In this document: positions 260 to 7,086 of the stretch, in pieces
Numbering within the stretch: the first letter of the stretch is position 1
How the letters are laid out: every line of letters starts with the position of its first letter
Source of the DNA: Desulfobacteraceae bacterium
GTDB lineage: Bacteria; Desulfobacterota; Desulfobacteria; Desulfobacterales; BuS5
Assembly (NCBI GenBank): GCA_030592105.1
Contig: JAUVKE010000130.1
Span: 1 to 7,086, forward strand
DNA length: 7,086 nucleotides
Direction: 5' to 3'
Program-made: the position numbers and the translations under genes
The notes under the pieces: generated by a model
What the model was told of the DNA's origin: nothing
The model's input: only the letters and a program-made list of their open reading frames with translations
Databases searched by the model: none

Positions 260-736
260 TTAACATTTATCTGCTATTTGTGTAACTCCCTGGGTACATC
301 CGGAGCATTTATTCTGTTTTATATGATCAAACATTTCCTTGCAGTCGTAAGAATCGGGATCTTTGGTTAAAATATTATCCAGATCCGGTTTTTCATATTT
401 AATATTCAGATCACGGCCCATCGATTCTCTGTATATCGCAAGGGAGTAGTTTATGGCTCCTGTGTTCAATTTTTCCTGCAACATTAAAATGTTTTGTATA
501 TTACCGGTATCGATTTCATGGTCGCCATGGAGGCTCGTATATATTTTAGTGACTATATCCATGATGGAGGGATCAATCCTGACCTTTGTATTATCATCGG
601 GATTATCAGGGGAAAACTGATCAATGAATTCACCTGTTTTTATGCTGATATAGGCAAGAATTTTGTGACTTAAATTCTGGGGCAGGAAATTTTTTATATC
701 CGTTGTTTCAAGTTCTTTTTTAATGAAAAGGATCAT
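260..736 (-). CDS. Hypothetical protein with C-terminal four-cysteine cluster
   Basis: I do not recognise this 158-residue protein. It has no signal peptide or membrane segment that I can see. It looks soluble, mixed helical and fairly rich in Asp, Asn, Lys and Ile. The clearest feature is the C-terminal tail with Cys132, Cys144, Cys147 and Cys158, the last being the final residue: a C-x11-C-x2-C-x10-C spacing that could hold a metal ion or Fe-S cluster, although it matches no motif I can name. The ATG at 736 is supported by AAGGA/GGAAG at 746-752, at a slightly long spacing of 9-11 nt. The gene is last in the minus-strand series, 117 nt after ppiC, and that gap contains a perfect 19-bp inverted repeat, so it may have its own control. 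Real coding is likely from its length, start site and the absence of a better overlapping frame; function is unknown. Confidence 0.7.
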   Translation of the reverse strand: MILFIKKELETTDIKNFLPQNLSHKILAYISIKTGEFIDQFSPDNPDDNTKVRIDPSIMDIVTKIYTSLHGDHEIDTGNIQNILMLQEKLNTGAINYSLAIYRESMGRDLNIKYEKPDLDNILTKDPDSYDCKEMFDHIKQNKCSGCTQGVTQIADKC

Positions 737-1193: not shown

Positions 1194-2171
1194 TTACCCG
1201 CCAATGGATGCCATGTTAGCAGATATTGCACAATGATTATCCTTTAAAATACCATGCCGGGCCGGTTTAGATCTTACAGCTTTTATGAAAATATCAGATA
1301 ATTGTCTGTCAGATGCTTTTGCTCTTAAAGCTTTTTTTATACCAACTTCATAGTCTGACAAAAGGCAGGGCCTAAGATTTCCCTTTGCCGTTAATCTGAT
1401 CCTGTTGCATTTTTCGCAGAAATGGTCACTCACAGGGGAGATAAACCCTATTTCTCCCTTTGCATTTTCAAATTTGTACCGTTTAACAGGGCCGTCATTA
1501 AGATCACCGGCAAGCCTTGTAAGTTTTCCTGCTCCTTTTATCCTTTTTTTCATTTCACCCATGGGTATATGCCAATCCTTTTTAGATGATGTGACTCCCA
1601 TGGGCATATATTCAATAAACCGTATCTGAAAAGGGTGGGAAAATGATAATTTTGCAAAATCTATTAATTCATTATCATTTACTCCTTTAAGGATAACAGC
1701 ATTAATCCTTATGGGGTCAAACCCATACTGCCGGGCTGATTTAATACCTTCCCTAACCCTGTCAAAACAATCTGACCCTGTTATTTTTTTATATTTTTTC
1801 CTGTTAAGGGTATCCAGGCTTATGTTAATTCTTTTAATACCGGCTGATTTAATTTTGTGAATATTTGGTTTCAGCAAAACCCCATTTGTTGTCAGGGAAA
1901 TATCTTTTAACCCCTTGATCTGTACGATTTTTTCCAAAAAATCGTAAACACCTCTTCTAACAAGGGGCTCTCCGCCGGTTATTCTGACTTTTGATATCCC
2001 CAGGCCGACTCCGAGTTTAACAAGGCGAAGAATTTCCTCATAGGACAGGATTTCCTTATAAAAACCCTGGGATAAAAATGGATTAGGGGTACAGTACTGA
2101 CAGTTCAAATTACAACGGTCTGTTATTGATATTCGAAGATAATCAATTTTACGTGCATGGCAATCAAACAT
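1194..2171 (-). CDS. moaA: GTP 3',8-cyclase (MoaA), radical SAM enzyme of molybdopterin synthesis
   Basis: MoaA converts GTP to 3',8-cyclo-7,8-dihydro-GTP, the first step of molybdenum or tungsten cofactor synthesis in the cytoplasm. The 325-residue product has the radical SAM cluster motif C-x3-C-x2-C at Cys20, Cys24 and Cys27, GGEP at 66-69 (SAM binding), FIEYMPMG in the middle, the second cluster motif C-x2-C-x13-C at Cys252, Cys255 and Cys269 with Arg257 and Arg259, and the family's C-terminal Gly-Gly, here the last two residues. Length is normal for the family. The ATG at 2171 overlaps the end of gpgS by 8 nt and has no strong ribosome binding site, which suggests translational coupling. 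No other molybdopterin gene is in the window. The product probably serves formate dehydrogenases or other Mo/W enzymes (inference). Nothing looks broken. Confidence 0.95.
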   Translation of the reverse strand: MFDCHARKIDYLRISITDRCNLNCQYCTPNPFLSQGFYKEILSYEEILRLVKLGVGLGISKVRITGGEPLVRRGVYDFLEKIVQIKGLKDISLTTNGVLLKPNIHKIKSAGIKRINISLDTLNRKKYKKITGSDCFDRVREGIKSARQYGFDPIRINAVILKGVNDNELIDFAKLSFSHPFQIRFIEYMPMGVTSSKKDWHIPMGEMKKRIKGAGKLTRLAGDLNDGPVKRYKFENAKGEIGFISPVSDHFCEKCNRIRLTAKGNLRPCLLSDYEVGIKKALRAKASDRQLSDIFIKAVRSKPARHGILKDNHCAISANMASIGG

Positions 2172-3171
2172 TTTTCGTTATTTTCTTTTTCATACTCTGA
2201 TCAATATTAAATTTTTTACGATATTCCGGTATCTCTATGATGGGGGGCCTTTCAAATTTTTTAATATCAAAAATATCAGGTCTGTATTCGTTATTAACAA
2301 TTTTATACTGTATCATGTCGGTGAGCATCTTTTTTTTGGTTTTTAAAACCCCAAGATGTTCAAGCCTGTCCATAAAAGTATTAATAATTGCAAAGGACAT
2401 TCTTCCCAGGGCTTTTGTATCCTGATTTCTATGAACACGTTTTTCAAGGTCCACCTGAGCCAGTACATCAAGCCCCCATTTTTCATAAATATCCAAAAGC
2501 ATACTGGTTTCAACTCCATAACCGATGGGGAAAGGAATATGCTCAAATATTTCTCTGTAACCGGCATATTCCCCTGACAGGGGTTGGATAATCTGAGCCA
2601 TTTCAGGGAAAAAAAGAGAAAAAAACGGTCTCACCACAAGCTCTGTAACTCTACCTCCGCCAGTTGGCCTTGTTTTTTTTTTGCCTGCTATGGGACGTTC
2701 ATAAAAGGCCTTAACATATTTAATATTATCATAAAGAAGAAGTGGACCCAGAAGAGCGTATGCAAATCTATGGTGAATATTTTTTATATCTGCATCAATA
2801 TATATAATTATATCACCGGATGTGACATATAATGCCTTCCAGAGGTTTTCGCCTTTTCCCCTTTGTTTTTCAAGGTCAGGGAGAATTTCATCTGCAATAT
2901 ATACTGAAGCGCCAAAAGACCTGGCAACCTCCCTTGTTCTATCTGTTGATCCGGAATCGATTACAACTATTTCATCGATCAGAGGATATCTCAGGACAAG
3001 CTCTGACCGGAATATAACTATCTCTTTTGCTATGGTCTCTTCCTCATTGAGAGTGGGTAGGCATAGTGATATGGTAAGATTTTTTCTTTTTTTCTCCTTA
3101 ACAAGGTAATTTAAATCTTTGAAATCTGAAAAATGGAAAGTATTTTTTTTAATCCAGGAATTATTATCCAT
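2164..3171 (-). CDS. gpgS: Glucosyl-3-phosphoglycerate synthase (GT81 family)
   Basis: GpgS moves glucose from a nucleotide sugar (UDP- or ADP-glucose) to D-3-phosphoglycerate. A phosphatase (GpgP) then releases glucosylglycerate, a compatible solute in salt- or nitrogen-stressed bacteria. The 335-residue product shows the GT-A nucleotide-sugar fold and family motifs in order: LCLPTLNEEETI (36-47), VIDSGSTDRT (70-79), the metal-binding D-A-D at 126-128, VKAFYERP (153-160), GGGRVTEL (171-178) for phosphoglycerate binding, QPLSGEYAG (196-204), PFPIGYGVE (213-221) and VHRNQ with His247, the likely metal-ligand His. I use the ATG at 3171 because GGAG at 3178-3181 lies 6 nt before it; a GTG one codon upstream (3174) is possible. 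It overlaps both the M20-like gene and moaA by 8 nt. No GpgP is present. A related mannosyl-3-phosphoglycerate synthase is a less likely alternative. Confidence 0.88.
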   Translation of the reverse strand: MDNNSWIKKNTFHFSDFKDLNYLVKEKKRKNLTISLCLPTLNEEETIAKEIVIFRSELVLRYPLIDEIVVIDSGSTDRTREVARSFGASVYIADEILPDLEKQRGKGENLWKALYVTSGDIIIYIDADIKNIHHRFAYALLGPLLLYDNIKYVKAFYERPIAGKKKTRPTGGGRVTELVVRPFFSLFFPEMAQIIQPLSGEYAGYREIFEHIPFPIGYGVETSMLLDIYEKWGLDVLAQVDLEKRVHRNQDTKALGRMSFAIINTFMDRLEHLGVLKTKKKMLTDMIQYKIVNNEYRPDIFDIKKFERPPIIEIPEYRKKFNIDQSMKKKITKNV

Positions 3172-4318
3172 CACATTCTCCGCTGTCTAGGGCCAAAAGT
3201 ACTCCTATAACCTGGGCGATACCCGTGAAAATAGGCTCAATCTCTATGGAACCATTTTCCAGGTGATAATTATCCCCTTTGCTCACTCCTAATGTTACAG
3301 CCGGAATATCATTGGCAAGAAAAATTGAAAGTTCAGATTCACTGTTTTCACTGACAGGGACTATACCCAGGGTTTTCATTACAGAGACAGTCTGTTTTAC
3401 CAAAGGATGGCTGAATTGCAACCTTGCAGGATTTGTACTACTTATGGTTTTCAACGTCAGGTTGACAACACGCTCATGGCTTATACCATTTACAATATCC
3501 CGTATGTCATCATATATTTCTTTTACCATGTCTTCGGAATCACTTTGTATTTCAAAACCCAGCTTTGCCTTAAGAGCGATTTTTCCATGCTTTACACCTC
3601 CGGAGATTTTTCCGAAAATCACTCTGGCCTGGGGTCTTTGGGGCAGCCTCAGTTTTAAAATCCTGTTAATAACTTCATAGAGAATAAGTATTGCATTGGG
3701 CCTAAAATTATTTTCCCAGCCCTGTTTTGAGGATATATTACAATTAATTTCACATCTCATCATACCGTTGGAATAATAATTCAATCTGCCTAAATCACAC
3801 CCTTCAAGGCAGATTGCGCCTCTGATGGGAGAAGCCCACCCCCTTAAAAGGTGCCTGATTCCCCGCAAATTCCCCTTTCCAATGGATTGAACAACTCCAG
3901 CCAGTACTATGTCCGATTCAAAATGAAGATTCAGCTTCCTGAAAATTTCCGGCAAAGAAACCAGAATCCCCACACCTGCAGAATTATCGAGGATGCCCGG
4001 GCCTGTTATATGTTTTTCTTTAACAGTATAGTTATGATCAACATCCTCATCAAAAATTGTGTCAATATGAGCAACAACAAAAATAGGCGGTTTGTCCCTG
4101 CGTGTTCCCCTGATGATCCCTATGGGATTTTGATAATTATCTGTGGAACATTCATCAATATTTAACTCTGACATCCTTTCCAGAATAATCTTGGTCCGGT
4201 TCTGTTCAAAAAATGTCGGGGCTGGCATCTGCCCGACCAAAACTATATTTGTAATTATCGTCTCTTTAATGGATTTAATTACATTTTCATATTCGGGTAA
4301 TCTTAAAATATAGTCCAT
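3164..4318 (-). CDS. M20 (peptidase T-like) family protein with altered catalytic site
   Basis: The 384-residue protein has the M20 dinuclear-zinc amidohydrolase layout: a metal-binding domain, an inserted dimerisation domain (about 190-295) and a closing metal-binding segment. Visible family signatures are AHIDT (His84, Asp86), GPGILDNSAG (bridging Asp111), NLRGIRHLL (150-158), LEG (Glu172), a GKISGG segment, and a C-terminal GDNYHLENGSIEI with His352. Where relatives read G-E-E-G-x-G before NLRG, this protein reads Q-S-I-G-K-G (144-149), so the general-base Glu and a zinc-ligand Glu are both replaced (Ser145, Ile146). The dimerisation-domain GGHSW-type motif reads SKQGW, with Gln199 for the His that completes the active site. 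I therefore expect no normal peptidase activity; a binding or modified hydrolase role is possible. AAAGG at 4325-4329 supports the ATG. The 8-nt overlap with gpgS suggests a shared job. Confidence 0.85.
   Translation of the reverse strand: MDYILRLPEYENVIKSIKETIITNIVLVGQMPAPTFFEQNRTKIILERMSELNIDECSTDNYQNPIGIIRGTRRDKPPIFVVAHIDTIFDEDVDHNYTVKEKHITGPGILDNSAGVGILVSLPEIFRKLNLHFESDIVLAGVVQSIGKGNLRGIRHLLRGWASPIRGAICLEGCDLGRLNYYSNGMMRCEINCNISSKQGWENNFRPNAILILYEVINRILKLRLPQRPQARVIFGKISGGVKHGKIALKAKLGFEIQSDSEDMVKEIYDDIRDIVNGISHERVVNLTLKTISSTNPARLQFSHPLVKQTVSVMKTLGIVPVSENSESELSIFLANDIPAVTLGVSKGDNYHLENGSIEIEPIFTGIAQVIGVLLALDSGECDG
3178..3181 (-). promoter_or_regulatory. Ribosome binding site that decides the gpgS start
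   Basis: GGAG on the minus strand lies 6 nt before the ATG at 3171 and only 3 nt before the in-frame GTG at 3174, so the ATG is the better start. The site sits inside the last codons of the M20-like gene, which fits translational coupling. Confidence 0.55.
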
Positions 4319-4386: not shown

Positions 4387-5910
4387 CTATTTATAATATT
4401 TTAATATTGCATCGCATAATCCGGAAATAGTATATGAATCTGCCATGAGATTGACATTAAACCCTGTTTTTCTTGCAGTCTCTGCAGTTATTGGCCCTAT
4501 GCAGGCTGTCTCCATTTTTTTCATAAACATTTTACATTTTTCAGGAGGGAGCATATTGAAAAAATTCTGAACAGTAGATGAACTTGTAAAGGTTATGAGA
4601 TCTATCTCCCCTAAAGAAAGAAGATCCATAACATGTTCGGAATTTGTACCTTCCGTTTTTGTGGAGTAAACAGCCACATCGTCAACAACCGCCCCCATAC
4701 GGGTCAATTCCACAGGGAGAACAGATCTTCCCTTTTGCGCCCTGGGAAGGAGCACCTTTTTCCCTTTGATATTTTTTTTTACAAATGCTTCAATAACAGA
4801 CTCAGCCCTGAAACTTTGAGGTATTATGTCACTTTTCAACCCAAATTCCAGAAGTTTTTTTTCTGTTGCAGTCCCGATAACAGCTGTTTTGATATGATTT
4901 AATGCACGGACATCTTTTCCTGCTTTATTAAAAAGCCTTTCGAAAAAAAACTCAATTCCATTTACACTTGTAAATATCAGCCATTCATAATCAGGAAGGT
5001 TTTTAATGGCCAGATCCAATGGTTTTAAATCATCCGGGGGATCAACCCTTATTACCGGAAATTCAATACAATCAGCACCAAGATCAGAGAGAAGCTTCAC
5101 CAGATCACTTGCCTGTTTTCTTGCCCTTGTAACAAGAATCGTTTTCCCCATAAGAGGCCGGTTTTCAAACCATGCCATCTTCTCCCTCAACTTTACTACA
5201 TCTCCAACAACTATAACAGCCGGGGGTTTAAGGTTAACTGCTCTTACTTTTTCAACAATATCGGCAAGGGTTCCGGCAACTGCATATTGTTTTGGGGTTG
5301 TTCCCCATCGGATCAGGGCAACTGGCGTATCAGAGCTTTTCCCGTGCTTTAAAAGTTTTGCAACAATTTTTTCGAGATTTTTAACTCCCATTAAAAACAC
5401 AATGGTCCCAATACCTTTTGCCAGGGATTCCCAGTCAATTTTTGATTTATTTTTTTCAGGGTCTTCATGACCTGTTACAAAAGCCAGAGTAGATGTGAAT
5501 TGCCTGTGGGTTAAAGGGATTCCGGCATATGCCGGAACTGCAATCGCAGAAGTTACCCCGGGAATTATTTCAAAGGGGATGTTTGCATCTATCAGGACTT
5601 CTGCTTCTTCCCCCCCCCTGCCGAAGACAAAAGGATCTCCACCTTTTAATCTTGCCACTGTAAAGCCTTCTTGTGCCTTTTCAACAAGAAGGTTATTTAT
5701 CTCTTCCTGGCTTAATGTATGATCACCTCCTCTTTTTCCTACATAGATGATCTCAGCATTTTTACGGGTATGGTTTAAAAGGTTGGGTGATGCAAGATAG
5801 TCATAAATAATTACATCGGCTTTTTCGATTGCCTCTTTTCCCTTAATTGTAATAAGATCCGGATCACCGGGACCTGCTCCTATTAAAGATACTTTAGCAT
5901 TTGTATTCAT
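4387..5910 (-). CDS. cobA-hemD: Bifunctional uroporphyrinogen-III C-methyltransferase / uroporphyrinogen-III synthase (CobA-HemD)
   Basis: A 507-residue fusion. The C-terminal HemD half closes hydroxymethylbilane with inversion of ring D to give uroporphyrinogen III; the N-terminal CobA (SUMT) half then methylates C2 and C7 with SAM to give precorrin-2, which feeds siroheme, cobalamin and the siroheme-dependent heme route. The SUMT half (about 1-245) is intact: GAGPGDPDLIT (11-21), RLKGGDPFVFGRGGEE (87-102), PGVTSAIAVPAYAGIPLTHR, TGHE, and the ALIRWGTTPKQ-GTL segment. The HemD half (about 255-507) shows ILVTRA at its start, IFTSVNGIEFF, LLPRAQKGR and TFTSSSTVQNF. The ATG at 5910 overlaps the HemC stop as ATGA, with only weak GGAT upstream, so translation is probably coupled. 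A run of nine G falls in codons 98-101, and an A9 run in the HemD half. The stop is TAG. Confidence 0.95.
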   Translation of the reverse strand: MNTNAKVSLIGAGPGDPDLITIKGKEAIEKADVIIYDYLASPNLLNHTRKNAEIIYVGKRGGDHTLSQEEINNLLVEKAQEGFTVARLKGGDPFVFGRGGEEAEVLIDANIPFEIIPGVTSAIAVPAYAGIPLTHRQFTSTLAFVTGHEDPEKNKSKIDWESLAKGIGTIVFLMGVKNLEKIVAKLLKHGKSSDTPVALIRWGTTPKQYAVAGTLADIVEKVRAVNLKPPAVIVVGDVVKLREKMAWFENRPLMGKTILVTRARKQASDLVKLLSDLGADCIEFPVIRVDPPDDLKPLDLAIKNLPDYEWLIFTSVNGIEFFFERLFNKAGKDVRALNHIKTAVIGTATEKKLLEFGLKSDIIPQSFRAESVIEAFVKKNIKGKKVLLPRAQKGRSVLPVELTRMGAVVDDVAVYSTKTEGTNSEHVMDLLSLGEIDLITFTSSSTVQNFFNMLPPEKCKMFMKKMETACIGPITAETARKTGFNVNLMADSYTISGLCDAILKYYK

Positions 5911-6830
5911 TTTAAATTATCCAATATCTGTTTTGCACCCATACAAAGGAGTATGTCACCCAGTTTTTCACCTATGGTTTCAGACAGATCCTTTGAACCG
6001 GACATGGTCTCTTTAATTATTTTTTTCCCATCTGGATCAGCGACTATTCCTGTTATGGAAAAAGTGTTTTCCTCTATCTTGCCAAGGGCTGCCAGGGGAA
6101 CCTGACATCCGCCCCCTAAACGGCGCGAAAAAGCACGCTCCCCCATAATCACAGAGCGTGTATTTCTTTCATCAAGTTTTGTCACAAAAGGGAGCACTTT
6201 ATAATCGTTATTTCTTGTCTCAATGCACAACGCCCCCTGGCCCACTGCCGGCAGCATAAAGGTCTCATCAAGATACTCTGTAATCCTCATGCTCATATTC
6301 ATTCTCAAAATATCTGCGGCAGCAAGAATGATTCCATCAAAATCCTTTGTTTCAAGTGTTCGGAGACGGGTATCCATATCTCCTTGTAACTGCACAATTT
6401 TTATATCCGGTTTTTTAAAAAGCAGCTGAGCAATTCTGGCATGGCCGTTTGTTCCTATGCACGCCCCGGGTTTCAACTCAGAAAAAGGGAGTTTATCTTT
6501 AGAAATAAAAGCATCATTAGCAATTTCACGAATTGGGACAGCTCCAATATAGAGCCCTTTAGAAATTTCAGCAGGCATATCTTCCATGCTGTGAACAGCA
6601 AGATCAATATCTTCCTGGAGAAGTGCATCCTCCATCTCTTTTACAAAAAGAGATTTAGTTCCAGCCTTTGAAAGTGGTGCATCAGGGGTTTTGTATTCCC
6701 TGGTTTTAACAACAACAACTTCAACAGATAAACCAGGATTTTTTTTTTCAAGCTGAGTCTTTACCCAGTTCGCCCGGCAAAGGGCAAGGGGATTTTCCCA
6801 TGTTCCAACTTTTATGTTAGAAGCCGTCAA
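5907..6830 (-). CDS. hemC: Hydroxymethylbilane synthase-like protein (HemC) with many altered active-site residues
   Basis: By family, HemC joins four porphobilinogens into hydroxymethylbilane on a dipyrromethane cofactor fixed to a Cys. This 307-residue protein covers all three domains and, counted from the TTG at 6830, matches E. coli numbering without gaps to Cys242 in GGGCQVP. Kept are Arg44, Lys55, Lys59, Phe62, Asp84 (HSMEDMP), Arg132, Arg155 (DTRL), Arg176 and LPAVGQGA (193-200). Changed against E. coli are R11W, S13N, D46Y, G60S, K83E, S128N, S129G, R131A, R149Q and N151D. Most of these positions hold the cofactor or substrate carboxylates, so normal activity is doubtful. No frameshift or stop is present. 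The TTG overlaps the fmdB stop as TTGA; an upstream in-frame TTG (6863) would add 11 residues unlike the family. The stop overlaps cobA-hemD as ATGA. Identity as a HemC-family protein is firm; function is uncertain. Confidence 0.9.
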   Translation of the reverse strand: MTASNIKVGTWENPLALCRANWVKTQLEKKNPGLSVEVVVVKTREYKTPDAPLSKAGTKSLFVKEMEDALLQEDIDLAVHSMEDMPAEISKGLYIGAVPIREIANDAFISKDKLPFSELKPGACIGTNGHARIAQLLFKKPDIKIVQLQGDMDTRLRTLETKDFDGIILAAADILRMNMSMRITEYLDETFMLPAVGQGALCIETRNNDYKVLPFVTKLDERNTRSVIMGERAFSRRLGGGCQVPLAALGKIEENTFSITGIVADPDGKKIIKETMSGSKDLSETIGEKLGDILLCMGAKQILDNLK

Positions 6831-7060
6831 CCTCCGCAGCCCGAACAGCTGGTGGCAGAGCAACTCCCACAGGATGATTCCGACGCAGAAGAACTGACAG
6901 TCTCACCATCTCCCCCCTTGCTCAGAAAACTGCATGCAGAGATAAGTTTATTAACATCTCCTTTACCACATGAAGGGCAAACAAAAGGCTCAGATTTTGA
7001 AATAACAAGATATTCAAAATTAGAGTCACAATTATTACAATGATATTCGTATATAGGCAC
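6827..7060 (-). CDS. FmdB-family zinc ribbon protein
   Basis: A 77-residue protein beginning MPIYEYHC, the hallmark of the FmdB family, small putative regulatory zinc ribbon proteins named after a gene next to formamidase in Methylophilus; the molecular role is unknown. Two Cys pairs, C-x2-C at Cys8/Cys11 and Cys28/Cys31, should bind one zinc. The rest is a Gly/Ser/Cys-rich tail ending in a run of Cys and Gly residues, also typical of the family. The GTG at 7060 is well supported by AAGGAG at 7068-7073, 7 nt upstream. It is the first gene in the window and its TGA overlaps the hemC TTG, so it is translated with the tetrapyrrole genes. A regulatory or metal-related role for that pathway is only a guess. 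Confidence 0.92.
   Translation of the reverse strand: MPIYEYHCNNCDSNFEYLVISKSEPFVCPSCGKGDVNKLISACSFLSKGGDGETVSSSASESSCGSCSATSCSGCGG
6831..6835 (-). promoter_or_regulatory. GGAGG directly against the hemC TTG
   Basis: GGAGG within the last codons of fmdB ends immediately before the TTG at 6830, with no spacer. That is too close for normal initiation at this TTG and may simply reflect Gly codons. If it functions, it would help re-initiation by ribosomes finishing fmdB. No standard start codon lies at the usual distance downstream in the hemC frame (ACG and ATA only). Confidence 0.3.
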
Positions 7061-7067
7061 AGATTTA

Positions 7068-7073
7068 CTCCTT
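7068..7073 (-). promoter_or_regulatory. Ribosome binding site of the FmdB-family gene
   Basis: AAGGAG on the minus strand, 7 nt before the GTG at 7060. This is the strongest ribosome binding site in the window and fits a first or early gene in the transcript. The promoter, if there is one here, would lie beyond the right edge. Confidence 0.75.
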
Positions 7074-7086
7074 ATTTAAATTCGAA

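What the first reader, a model, noticed from the sequence alone, without database searches (positions are those of the whole stretch)
5907..6830. HemC with an extensively rewritten active site, in the normal hemC position
Seen: counted from the TTG at 6830 the protein aligns gap-free with E. coli HemC (recalled sequence) up to Cys242, yet carries R11W, S13N, G45E, D46Y, G60S, K83E, S128N, S129G, R131A, R149Q and N151D. Several of these positions bind cofactor or substrate carboxylates, and R149 corresponds to human R167, where R167Q is a known acute intermittent porphyria variant. Most changes are single transitions, the frame is intact, and core motifs such as LPAVGQGA and GGGCQVP remain, so the changes cluster at functional positions rather than looking like random decay. 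The neighbouring CobA-HemD still needs hydroxymethylbilane. Inference: either another HemC exists in the genome, or this one has a changed mechanism, partner or substrate.
Basis: partly seen in the sequence, partly recalled or inferred. Interest (0 to 1): 0.72.

Follow-up and report, generated by a model that had tools for sequence, protein, structure and literature searches.

The report
HemC that lost its active site
In a small group of probable sulfate-reducing bacteria the gene for an essential pigment-pathway enzyme (HemC) still stands whole in its usual place, but the protein has lost residues that the enzyme needs to work, so it is probably an enzyme-shaped protein with another role while the source of the real activity remains to be found.

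Summary
All eleven substitutions are present, with more (Q19R, W18C, L130H, G58T, G173D). At 71 positions at least 97% conserved in 226 other HemCs the window differs at 19; the 226 average 0.44. Three relatives on other contigs share the condition (14, 18, 18). All four have R11W, S129G and N151D and lack R131 and R149; two also lack the cofactor cysteine C242. Neighbouring CobA-HemD keeps 115 of 116 conserved positions. hemC is open, dN/dS 0.34 (residues 1-150 0.52, 151-307 0.18), against 0.10-0.16 for four neighbours. Best reading: a HemC pseudoenzyme; activity was lost in the clade's ancestor while the fold, above all the C-terminal half, stays under selection. The nearest MAG has full-length HemB and DsrAB, so hydroxymethylbilane should be needed, but only this HemC. 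It is incomplete, so a second HemC is neither found nor excluded.

The parts
5907..6830 (-). HemC-like protein, 307 aa, TTG start; HemC pseudoenzyme (inferred)
6798..6800 (-). codon 11, Trp (E. coli Arg11); shared by all 4 clade members
6582..6584 (-). codon 83, Glu (E. coli Lys83); private to the window within the clade
6579..6581 (-). codon 84, Asp (catalytic Asp84); kept in all 4 clade members
6438..6449 (-). codons 128-131, N-G-H-A in place of S-S-L-R (cofactor-holding Ser129 and Arg131 lost)
6378..6386 (-). codons 149-151, Q-G-D in place of R-G-N
6105..6107 (-). codon 242, Cys (cofactor cysteine); kept here and in P0002, lost in P0003 (His) and P0004 (Ser)
4387..5910 (-). CobA-HemD fusion, 507 aa, conserved; its ATG overlaps the hemC stop (ATGA)
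   Evidence: overlap read
6827..7060 (-). FmdB-like zinc-ribbon protein, 77 aa (name recalled, no family search); its stop overlaps the hemC start (TTGA)
   Evidence: sequence; similar gene upstream in 79 of 125 hemC loci

Best explanation
The gene is the true hemC of this Desulfobacterales lineage by descent and position, but its product no longer makes hydroxymethylbilane. In the common ancestor of at least four lineages residues that hold the dipyrromethane cofactor and the growing chain were lost (R11W, S129G, R131A/G, R149Q/H, N151D, G58 and G60 of the lid loop). With the catalytic constraint gone, formerly invariant sites now change as freely as the rest of the protein; two lineages have also lost the cofactor cysteine. 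The reading frame, the fold and above all the C-terminal half stay under purifying selection, so the protein is made and matters as a folded body (shown: selection in one DNA pair; inferred: role). I think the most likely role is structural or regulatory beside CobA-HemD, with which it is probably co-translated. The hydroxymethylbilane that CobA-HemD still needs would come from an enzyme encoded elsewhere and not yet seen (inferred).
For: Near-invariant sites changed: 19, 14, 18 and 18 of 71 in the four members, against 1 in sister P0005 and a mean of 0.44 in 226 others. One clade, 100/100, with P0005 as sister, 100/100. Loss of C242 in P0003 and P0004, G240C in P0004. In E. coli R131L and R132L affect cofactor binding and leave the protein inactive, and R11H and R149H are detrimental (PMC3945110, passages); in a human saturation map C261 and the positions that I equate with K83, S129 and R131 are generally intolerant (PMC9934555, passages). 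Within the clade 25-42% of amino-acid differences fall on near-invariant sites (chance share 23%), against mean 0.3%, maximum 5.7%, in 2,995 canonical pairs of 10-22% difference; dN/dS is 0.34 at near-invariant and at other codons alike. Purifying selection remains: 68 of 119 changes non-synonymous against 74% expected, p 3e-5; residues 151-307 p 8e-6 (counts rounded). Four gap-free proteins of 307 aa. Neighbours normal: CobA-HemD 1 of 116 sites changed, four neighbours dN/dS 0.10-0.16. Fold predicted intact.
Against: No second HemC has been seen: the one related MAG has a single hemC. Asp84, Arg132, Arg155, Ser81 and Gln198 stay in all four, and Cys242 in two, which leaves residual or altered chemistry possible. 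dN/dS rests on one DNA pair (window and L001). P0002 and P0003 were seen only as database proteins, which are listed because their frames are open, so '4 of 4 open' is partly a selection effect. Residues 1-150 are hardly distinguishable from neutral drift (p 0.06; residues 1-50 dN/dS 1.16). The fast change of HemC against CobA-HemD for window/P0002 (ratio 4.6) is not far above one canonical pair, L057/L050 (3.8). AlphaFold used 49 mostly canonical HemCs and three of its five models were poor (mean pLDDT 66-71 against 89), so the intact predicted fold is weak evidence.
Confidence: 0.6

Rival explanations
1. A dying gene held open. HemC became dispensable (for example through an acquired second copy) and is decaying, but stops and frameshifts are kept out because the FmdB-like gene, hemC and cobA-hemD overlap and are co-translated, so a break would silence cobA-hemD.
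For: Start and stop overlaps on both sides (TTGA, ATGA); residues 1-150 near neutrality (p 0.06); changes strike formerly invariant sites as often as others; no HemC with the contig length of P0125 (34,798 bases, CobA-HemD 93%) is in the listed best 120.
Against: Residues 151-307 are constrained at the protein level (dN/dS 0.18, p 8e-6), which coupling does not explain; no clade fragment among the 120 listed hits of a search with residues 140-307 (best 61% identity). The spacing to cobA-hemD varies in relatives: of 94 loci 52 overlap or abut, 18 are 1-30 and 24 more than 30 bases apart.
Confidence: 0.22
2. A still active hydroxymethylbilane synthase with a rewired cleft: the remaining Asp84, Arg132, Arg155 and, in the window, Cys242 suffice, perhaps with help from CobA-HemD.
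For: It is the only HemC in the related MAG, which has full-length HemB, DsrA and DsrB; residues of the substrate side stay; human R167Q, the R149Q equivalent, has a solved ES3 state (title of 8pnd) and R167W still forms ES intermediates (PMC7907807, passages).
Against: C242 lost in 2 of 4 members; R11, S129, R131, R149 and N151 all replaced in 4 of 4; further losses differ from lineage to lineage, as drift and not a new design would give.
Confidence: 0.13
3. Sequencing or assembly artefact.
For: Window and relatives come from metagenome-type assemblies.
Against: Proteins from contigs of four different lengths share derived residues and form one clade; neighbours in the window and L001 are normal; no mutational bias.
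Confidence: 0.02

Closest known systems
Hydroxymethylbilane synthase / porphobilinogen deaminase (HemC, TIGR00212, PF01379 + PF03900)
   Different: R11, S129, R131, R149, N151 and lid-loop glycines gone; in two relatives the cofactor cysteine too
Canonical sister P0005 (67.8% identical)
   Same: Closest canonical relative, 307 aa; its longest contig has the length of that of a 75% CobA-HemD, so probably the same operon
   Different: Only 1 of 71 near-invariant sites differs
Pseudoenzymes kept as partners or regulators of active relatives (for example the trypanosomatid AdoMetDC prozyme; recalled, no call)
   Same: Fold kept under selection with catalytic residues lost
   Different: No active paralog or partner has been shown here; this is the ortholog in its own operon, not a paralog

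Membership tests
HemC protein family (by descent) | Profile score above the curated cut-off | tested here: met
   TIGR00212 281.8 bits, cut-off 164; PF01379 209.5 and PF03900 59.5 bits
HemC protein family (by descent) | Porphobilinogen deaminase fold | tested here: met
Functional hydroxymethylbilane synthase | Cysteine that carries the dipyrromethane cofactor (E. coli C242) | tested here: inconclusive
   Present in the window and P0002, absent in P0003 (His) and P0004 (Ser)
Functional hydroxymethylbilane synthase | Catalytic aspartate (E. coli D84) | tested here: met
   Kept in 4 of 4 clade members
Functional hydroxymethylbilane synthase | Cofactor-holding Ser129, Arg131 and Arg132 | tested here: not met
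   S129G and R131A/G in 4 of 4; R132 kept
Functional hydroxymethylbilane synthase | Chain-elongation arginines R11, R149, R155, R176 | tested here: not met
   R11W and R149Q/H in 4 of 4; R155 kept in 4; R176 kept in 2 of 4, window included
Functional hydroxymethylbilane synthase | Converts porphobilinogen to hydroxymethylbilane | not testable with these tools
   No assay
Pseudogene | Broken reading frame | tested here: not met
   Open 307-aa frame in the DNA of window and L001; simulated neutral change leaves it open in 7.5% (119 changes) or 0.5% (277 changes) of 4,000 runs. P0002 and P0003 seen as proteins only
Pseudogene | Neutral rate of amino-acid change | tested here: not met
   dN/dS 0.34, p 3e-5 against neutrality; residues 1-150 alone p 0.06
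Pseudoenzyme | Catalytic residues lost while fold and frame are conserved | tested here: inconclusive
   Sequence side met; absence of activity not assayed and Asp84 and, in the window, Cys242 remain

The most novel reading that the evidence does not exclude
Probability: 0.1. Interest if true: 0.85.

Novelty: new variant of a known kind. Interest (0 to 1): 0.52.

Why it matters
HemC makes the linear tetrapyrrole from which heme, siroheme and cobalamin descend, and the clade's nearest MAG keeps HemB and the siroheme enzyme DsrAB. A HemC that has lost cofactor-site residues while staying under selection in its own operon is a kind of natural pseudoenzyme that I did not find described (searches; the last two saw only the listed 10 of 41 and 12 of 2,053 papers). 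It makes a clear question testable: who makes hydroxymethylbilane in these bacteria, and what is the old protein kept for? It also gives a natural set of multi-site variants at positions where human variants are linked to acute intermittent porphyria.

Tried and rejected
Hypermutation or damage: rejected, hemC has about the same transition:transversion ratio as three neighbours. Decay of the whole locus: rejected, four neighbours show dN/dS 0.10-0.16. Conserved-site control for the neighbours: CobA-HemD deviates at 1 of 116 sites (73 other sequences, mean 0.97). The other controls are weak for want of sequences: M20 4 of 129 (7 others), GpgS 8 of 172 (5 others), MoaA 7 of 100 (9 others), FmdB-like 2 of 16, one of them the GTG start (57 others); most of these changes are conservative. 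P0005 as the functional paralog: rejected as the simple reading, because its longest contig (5329) has the length of that of a 75% CobA-HemD, so it seems to be the syntenic ortholog of a sister lineage; inferred from length only. Broken copies in close relatives: a search with residues 140-307 listed nothing above 61% identity in its best 120 of 504; fragments under 92 aa could not appear. Second HemC in MAG G001: none. Completeness of G001: 8 tRNA genes in the 120 contigs (692,735 bases, one contig cut at 20 kb) that I held; three tRNA-synthetase domain searches hit 5, 2 and 4 contigs, C13 in two of them, which I read, from recalled expectations, as roughly three quarters complete. HemA and HemL were not found in it (the HemL hits are ArgD and BioA), and no AhbD over cut-off (best 235 bits of 500). 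HemA is over cut-off in 37 of 40 genomes, G001 counted; the three without it have 1.6, 2.2 and 2.0 million bases, so incompleteness explains it best. Rfam and tRNA scans of the window found nothing. Viral contigs gave four distant HemCs. Literature: no paper in the held library has both 'porphobilinogen deaminase' and 'pseudoenzyme'; searches showed nothing on point in what they listed. Rows dropped: the pair control left out the clade, E. coli and the four distant HemCs L081-L084; the clade and one locus copy of P0004.

Full report

The substitutions. In an alignment of 231 distinct sequences I set aside the clade (four proteins and a locus copy of one) and took 226 others: 71 positions are at least 97% conserved; the window deviates at 19, P0002 at 14, P0003 at 18, P0004 at 18, canonical P0005 at 1, E. 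coli at 2, and the 226 average 0.44. The highest of the 226 are four distant HemCs from IMG/VR contigs (16, 10, 5, 5). Other thresholds give the same picture, though at 90% the distant ones reach 38; at 34 exceptionless positions the clade deviates at 7 to 11. At 22 key positions, over 362 rows including fragments, the clade has 8 to 11 deviations and no other row more than 4.

The clade. The protein search (best 120 listed of 7,520) shows three relatives of 88, 85 and 80% identity, then P0005 (67%), then 61% and less. The four form one clade with full support and P0005 is its sister (41 rows). Shared by all four: R11W, S129G, N151D, loss of R131 (A, A, A, G), of R149 (Q, Q, H, Q) and of G58 and G60. 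Changes at once-invariant sites go on in each lineage: K83E and G45E in the window; A16P and T127A in P0002; K55E, G57E and C242H in P0003; G240C and C242S in P0004. Asp84, Arg132, Arg155, His80, Ser81 and Gln198 are kept in all.

What those residues do. In E. coli, R131L and R132L affect cofactor binding and leave the protein inactive, and R11H, R149H, R155H and R176H are detrimental; in simulations K83, S128, S129, R131, R149 and N151 contact the growing chain (PMC3945110, passages read). In a human saturation map the cofactor cysteine and the positions K98, S147 and R149 are generally intolerant, R26 and Q34 somewhat less so, and N169 tolerant (PMC9934555, passages); I equate them with E. 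coli C242, K83, S129, R131, R11, Q19 and N151, partly by offset. Human R167W, at the R149 position, is slow but still forms intermediates (PMC7907807, passages). One change would not prove loss; R11, S129, R131 and R149 lost together make it likely.

Selection. L001 (MAG contig DAOWMW010000082.1, Desulfobacteraceae, isolate CSMAG_3012; the name points to a cold-seep catalogue, PMC10491686, seen only in the listing) encodes P0004 and has the same gene order. Window against L001: hemC dN/dS 0.34, four neighbours 0.10 to 0.16 with like dS (that script failed only after printing these); the difference is significant (p 2.5e-5). Against neutrality hemC as a whole is constrained (p 3e-5), residues 151-307 strongly (p 8e-6), residues 1-150 hardly (p 0.06). 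dN/dS is 0.34 both at near-invariant and at other codons, so the catalytic constraint is gone while a general one remains. Among the six clade pairs 25 to 42% of differences fall on near-invariant sites, against a mean of 0.3% and a maximum of 5.7% in 2,995 canonical pairs of 10-22% difference. Whether the changes prefer contact sites among the invariant ones is open: not significant for contacts alone, significant with the lid loop.

The rest of the pathway. CobA-HemD differs at 1 (window) and 2 (L001) of 116 conserved sites, 73 other sequences averaging 0.97; both halves are constrained (0.12, 0.17). P0124, whose longest contig has the length of P0002's, is 97.4% identical to the window's CobA-HemD, while the HemCs are 88.3% identical. 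The distance ratio is 4.6, against a median of 0.97 over 2,415 pairs of 70 loci, maximum 3.8. That P0124 and P0002 share a contig is inferred from length. The L001 genome, G001, has full-length HemB, DsrA and DsrB over their cut-offs and one hemC. It is incomplete, so a missing second hemC is a real possibility.

Surroundings. cobA-hemD follows hemC within 300 bases on the same strand in 94 of 125 loci and the FmdB-like gene precedes it within 400 bases in 79 (some genomes are in twice and some contigs end nearby), so the place is the normal one. In window and L001 hemC overlaps both neighbours (TTGA, ATGA), which makes co-translation likely and gives the decay rival its strength.

Judgement. 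Loss of canonical activity I hold likely (about 0.8 over the first two explanations together); that the protein is kept for a role of its own I hold at 0.6. The role beside CobA-HemD is inference. The case is a new variant of a known kind: a family member that has become a pseudoenzyme in its own operon.

Noticed in passing
window 260-736 (-): ORF of 158 aa with a Cys-containing end and no Pfam or NCBIfam match at E 0.001.
   Followed up: no
P0125 (CobA-HemD, 93%, contig of 34,798 bases): No HemC with that contig length is in the best 120 listed, although its closest relatives have one; broken hemC, contig end, or an unlisted distant HemC?
   Followed up: partly
L001 25-63 and 201-239: A 39-nt direct repeat upstream of the FmdB-like gene (97% identical); none found in the window's 6860-7086.
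   Followed up: no
MAG G001: HemA and HemL not found while HemB, CobA-HemD and DsrAB are there; probably incompleteness.
   Followed up: partly
L081-L084: Four IMG/VR contigs carry a distant HemC (31-36% identity); L084 deviates at 16 of 71 conserved sites but keeps R11, D84, R131, R149 and C242.
   Followed up: partly
L057 and L050: Canonical Desulfobulbaceae pair in which HemC differs 3.8 times as much as CobA-HemD; reason not examined.
   Followed up: no
window 1194-4318 (-): M20-type peptidase, glucosyl-3-phosphoglycerate synthase and moaA stand in the same order in L001.
   Followed up: no
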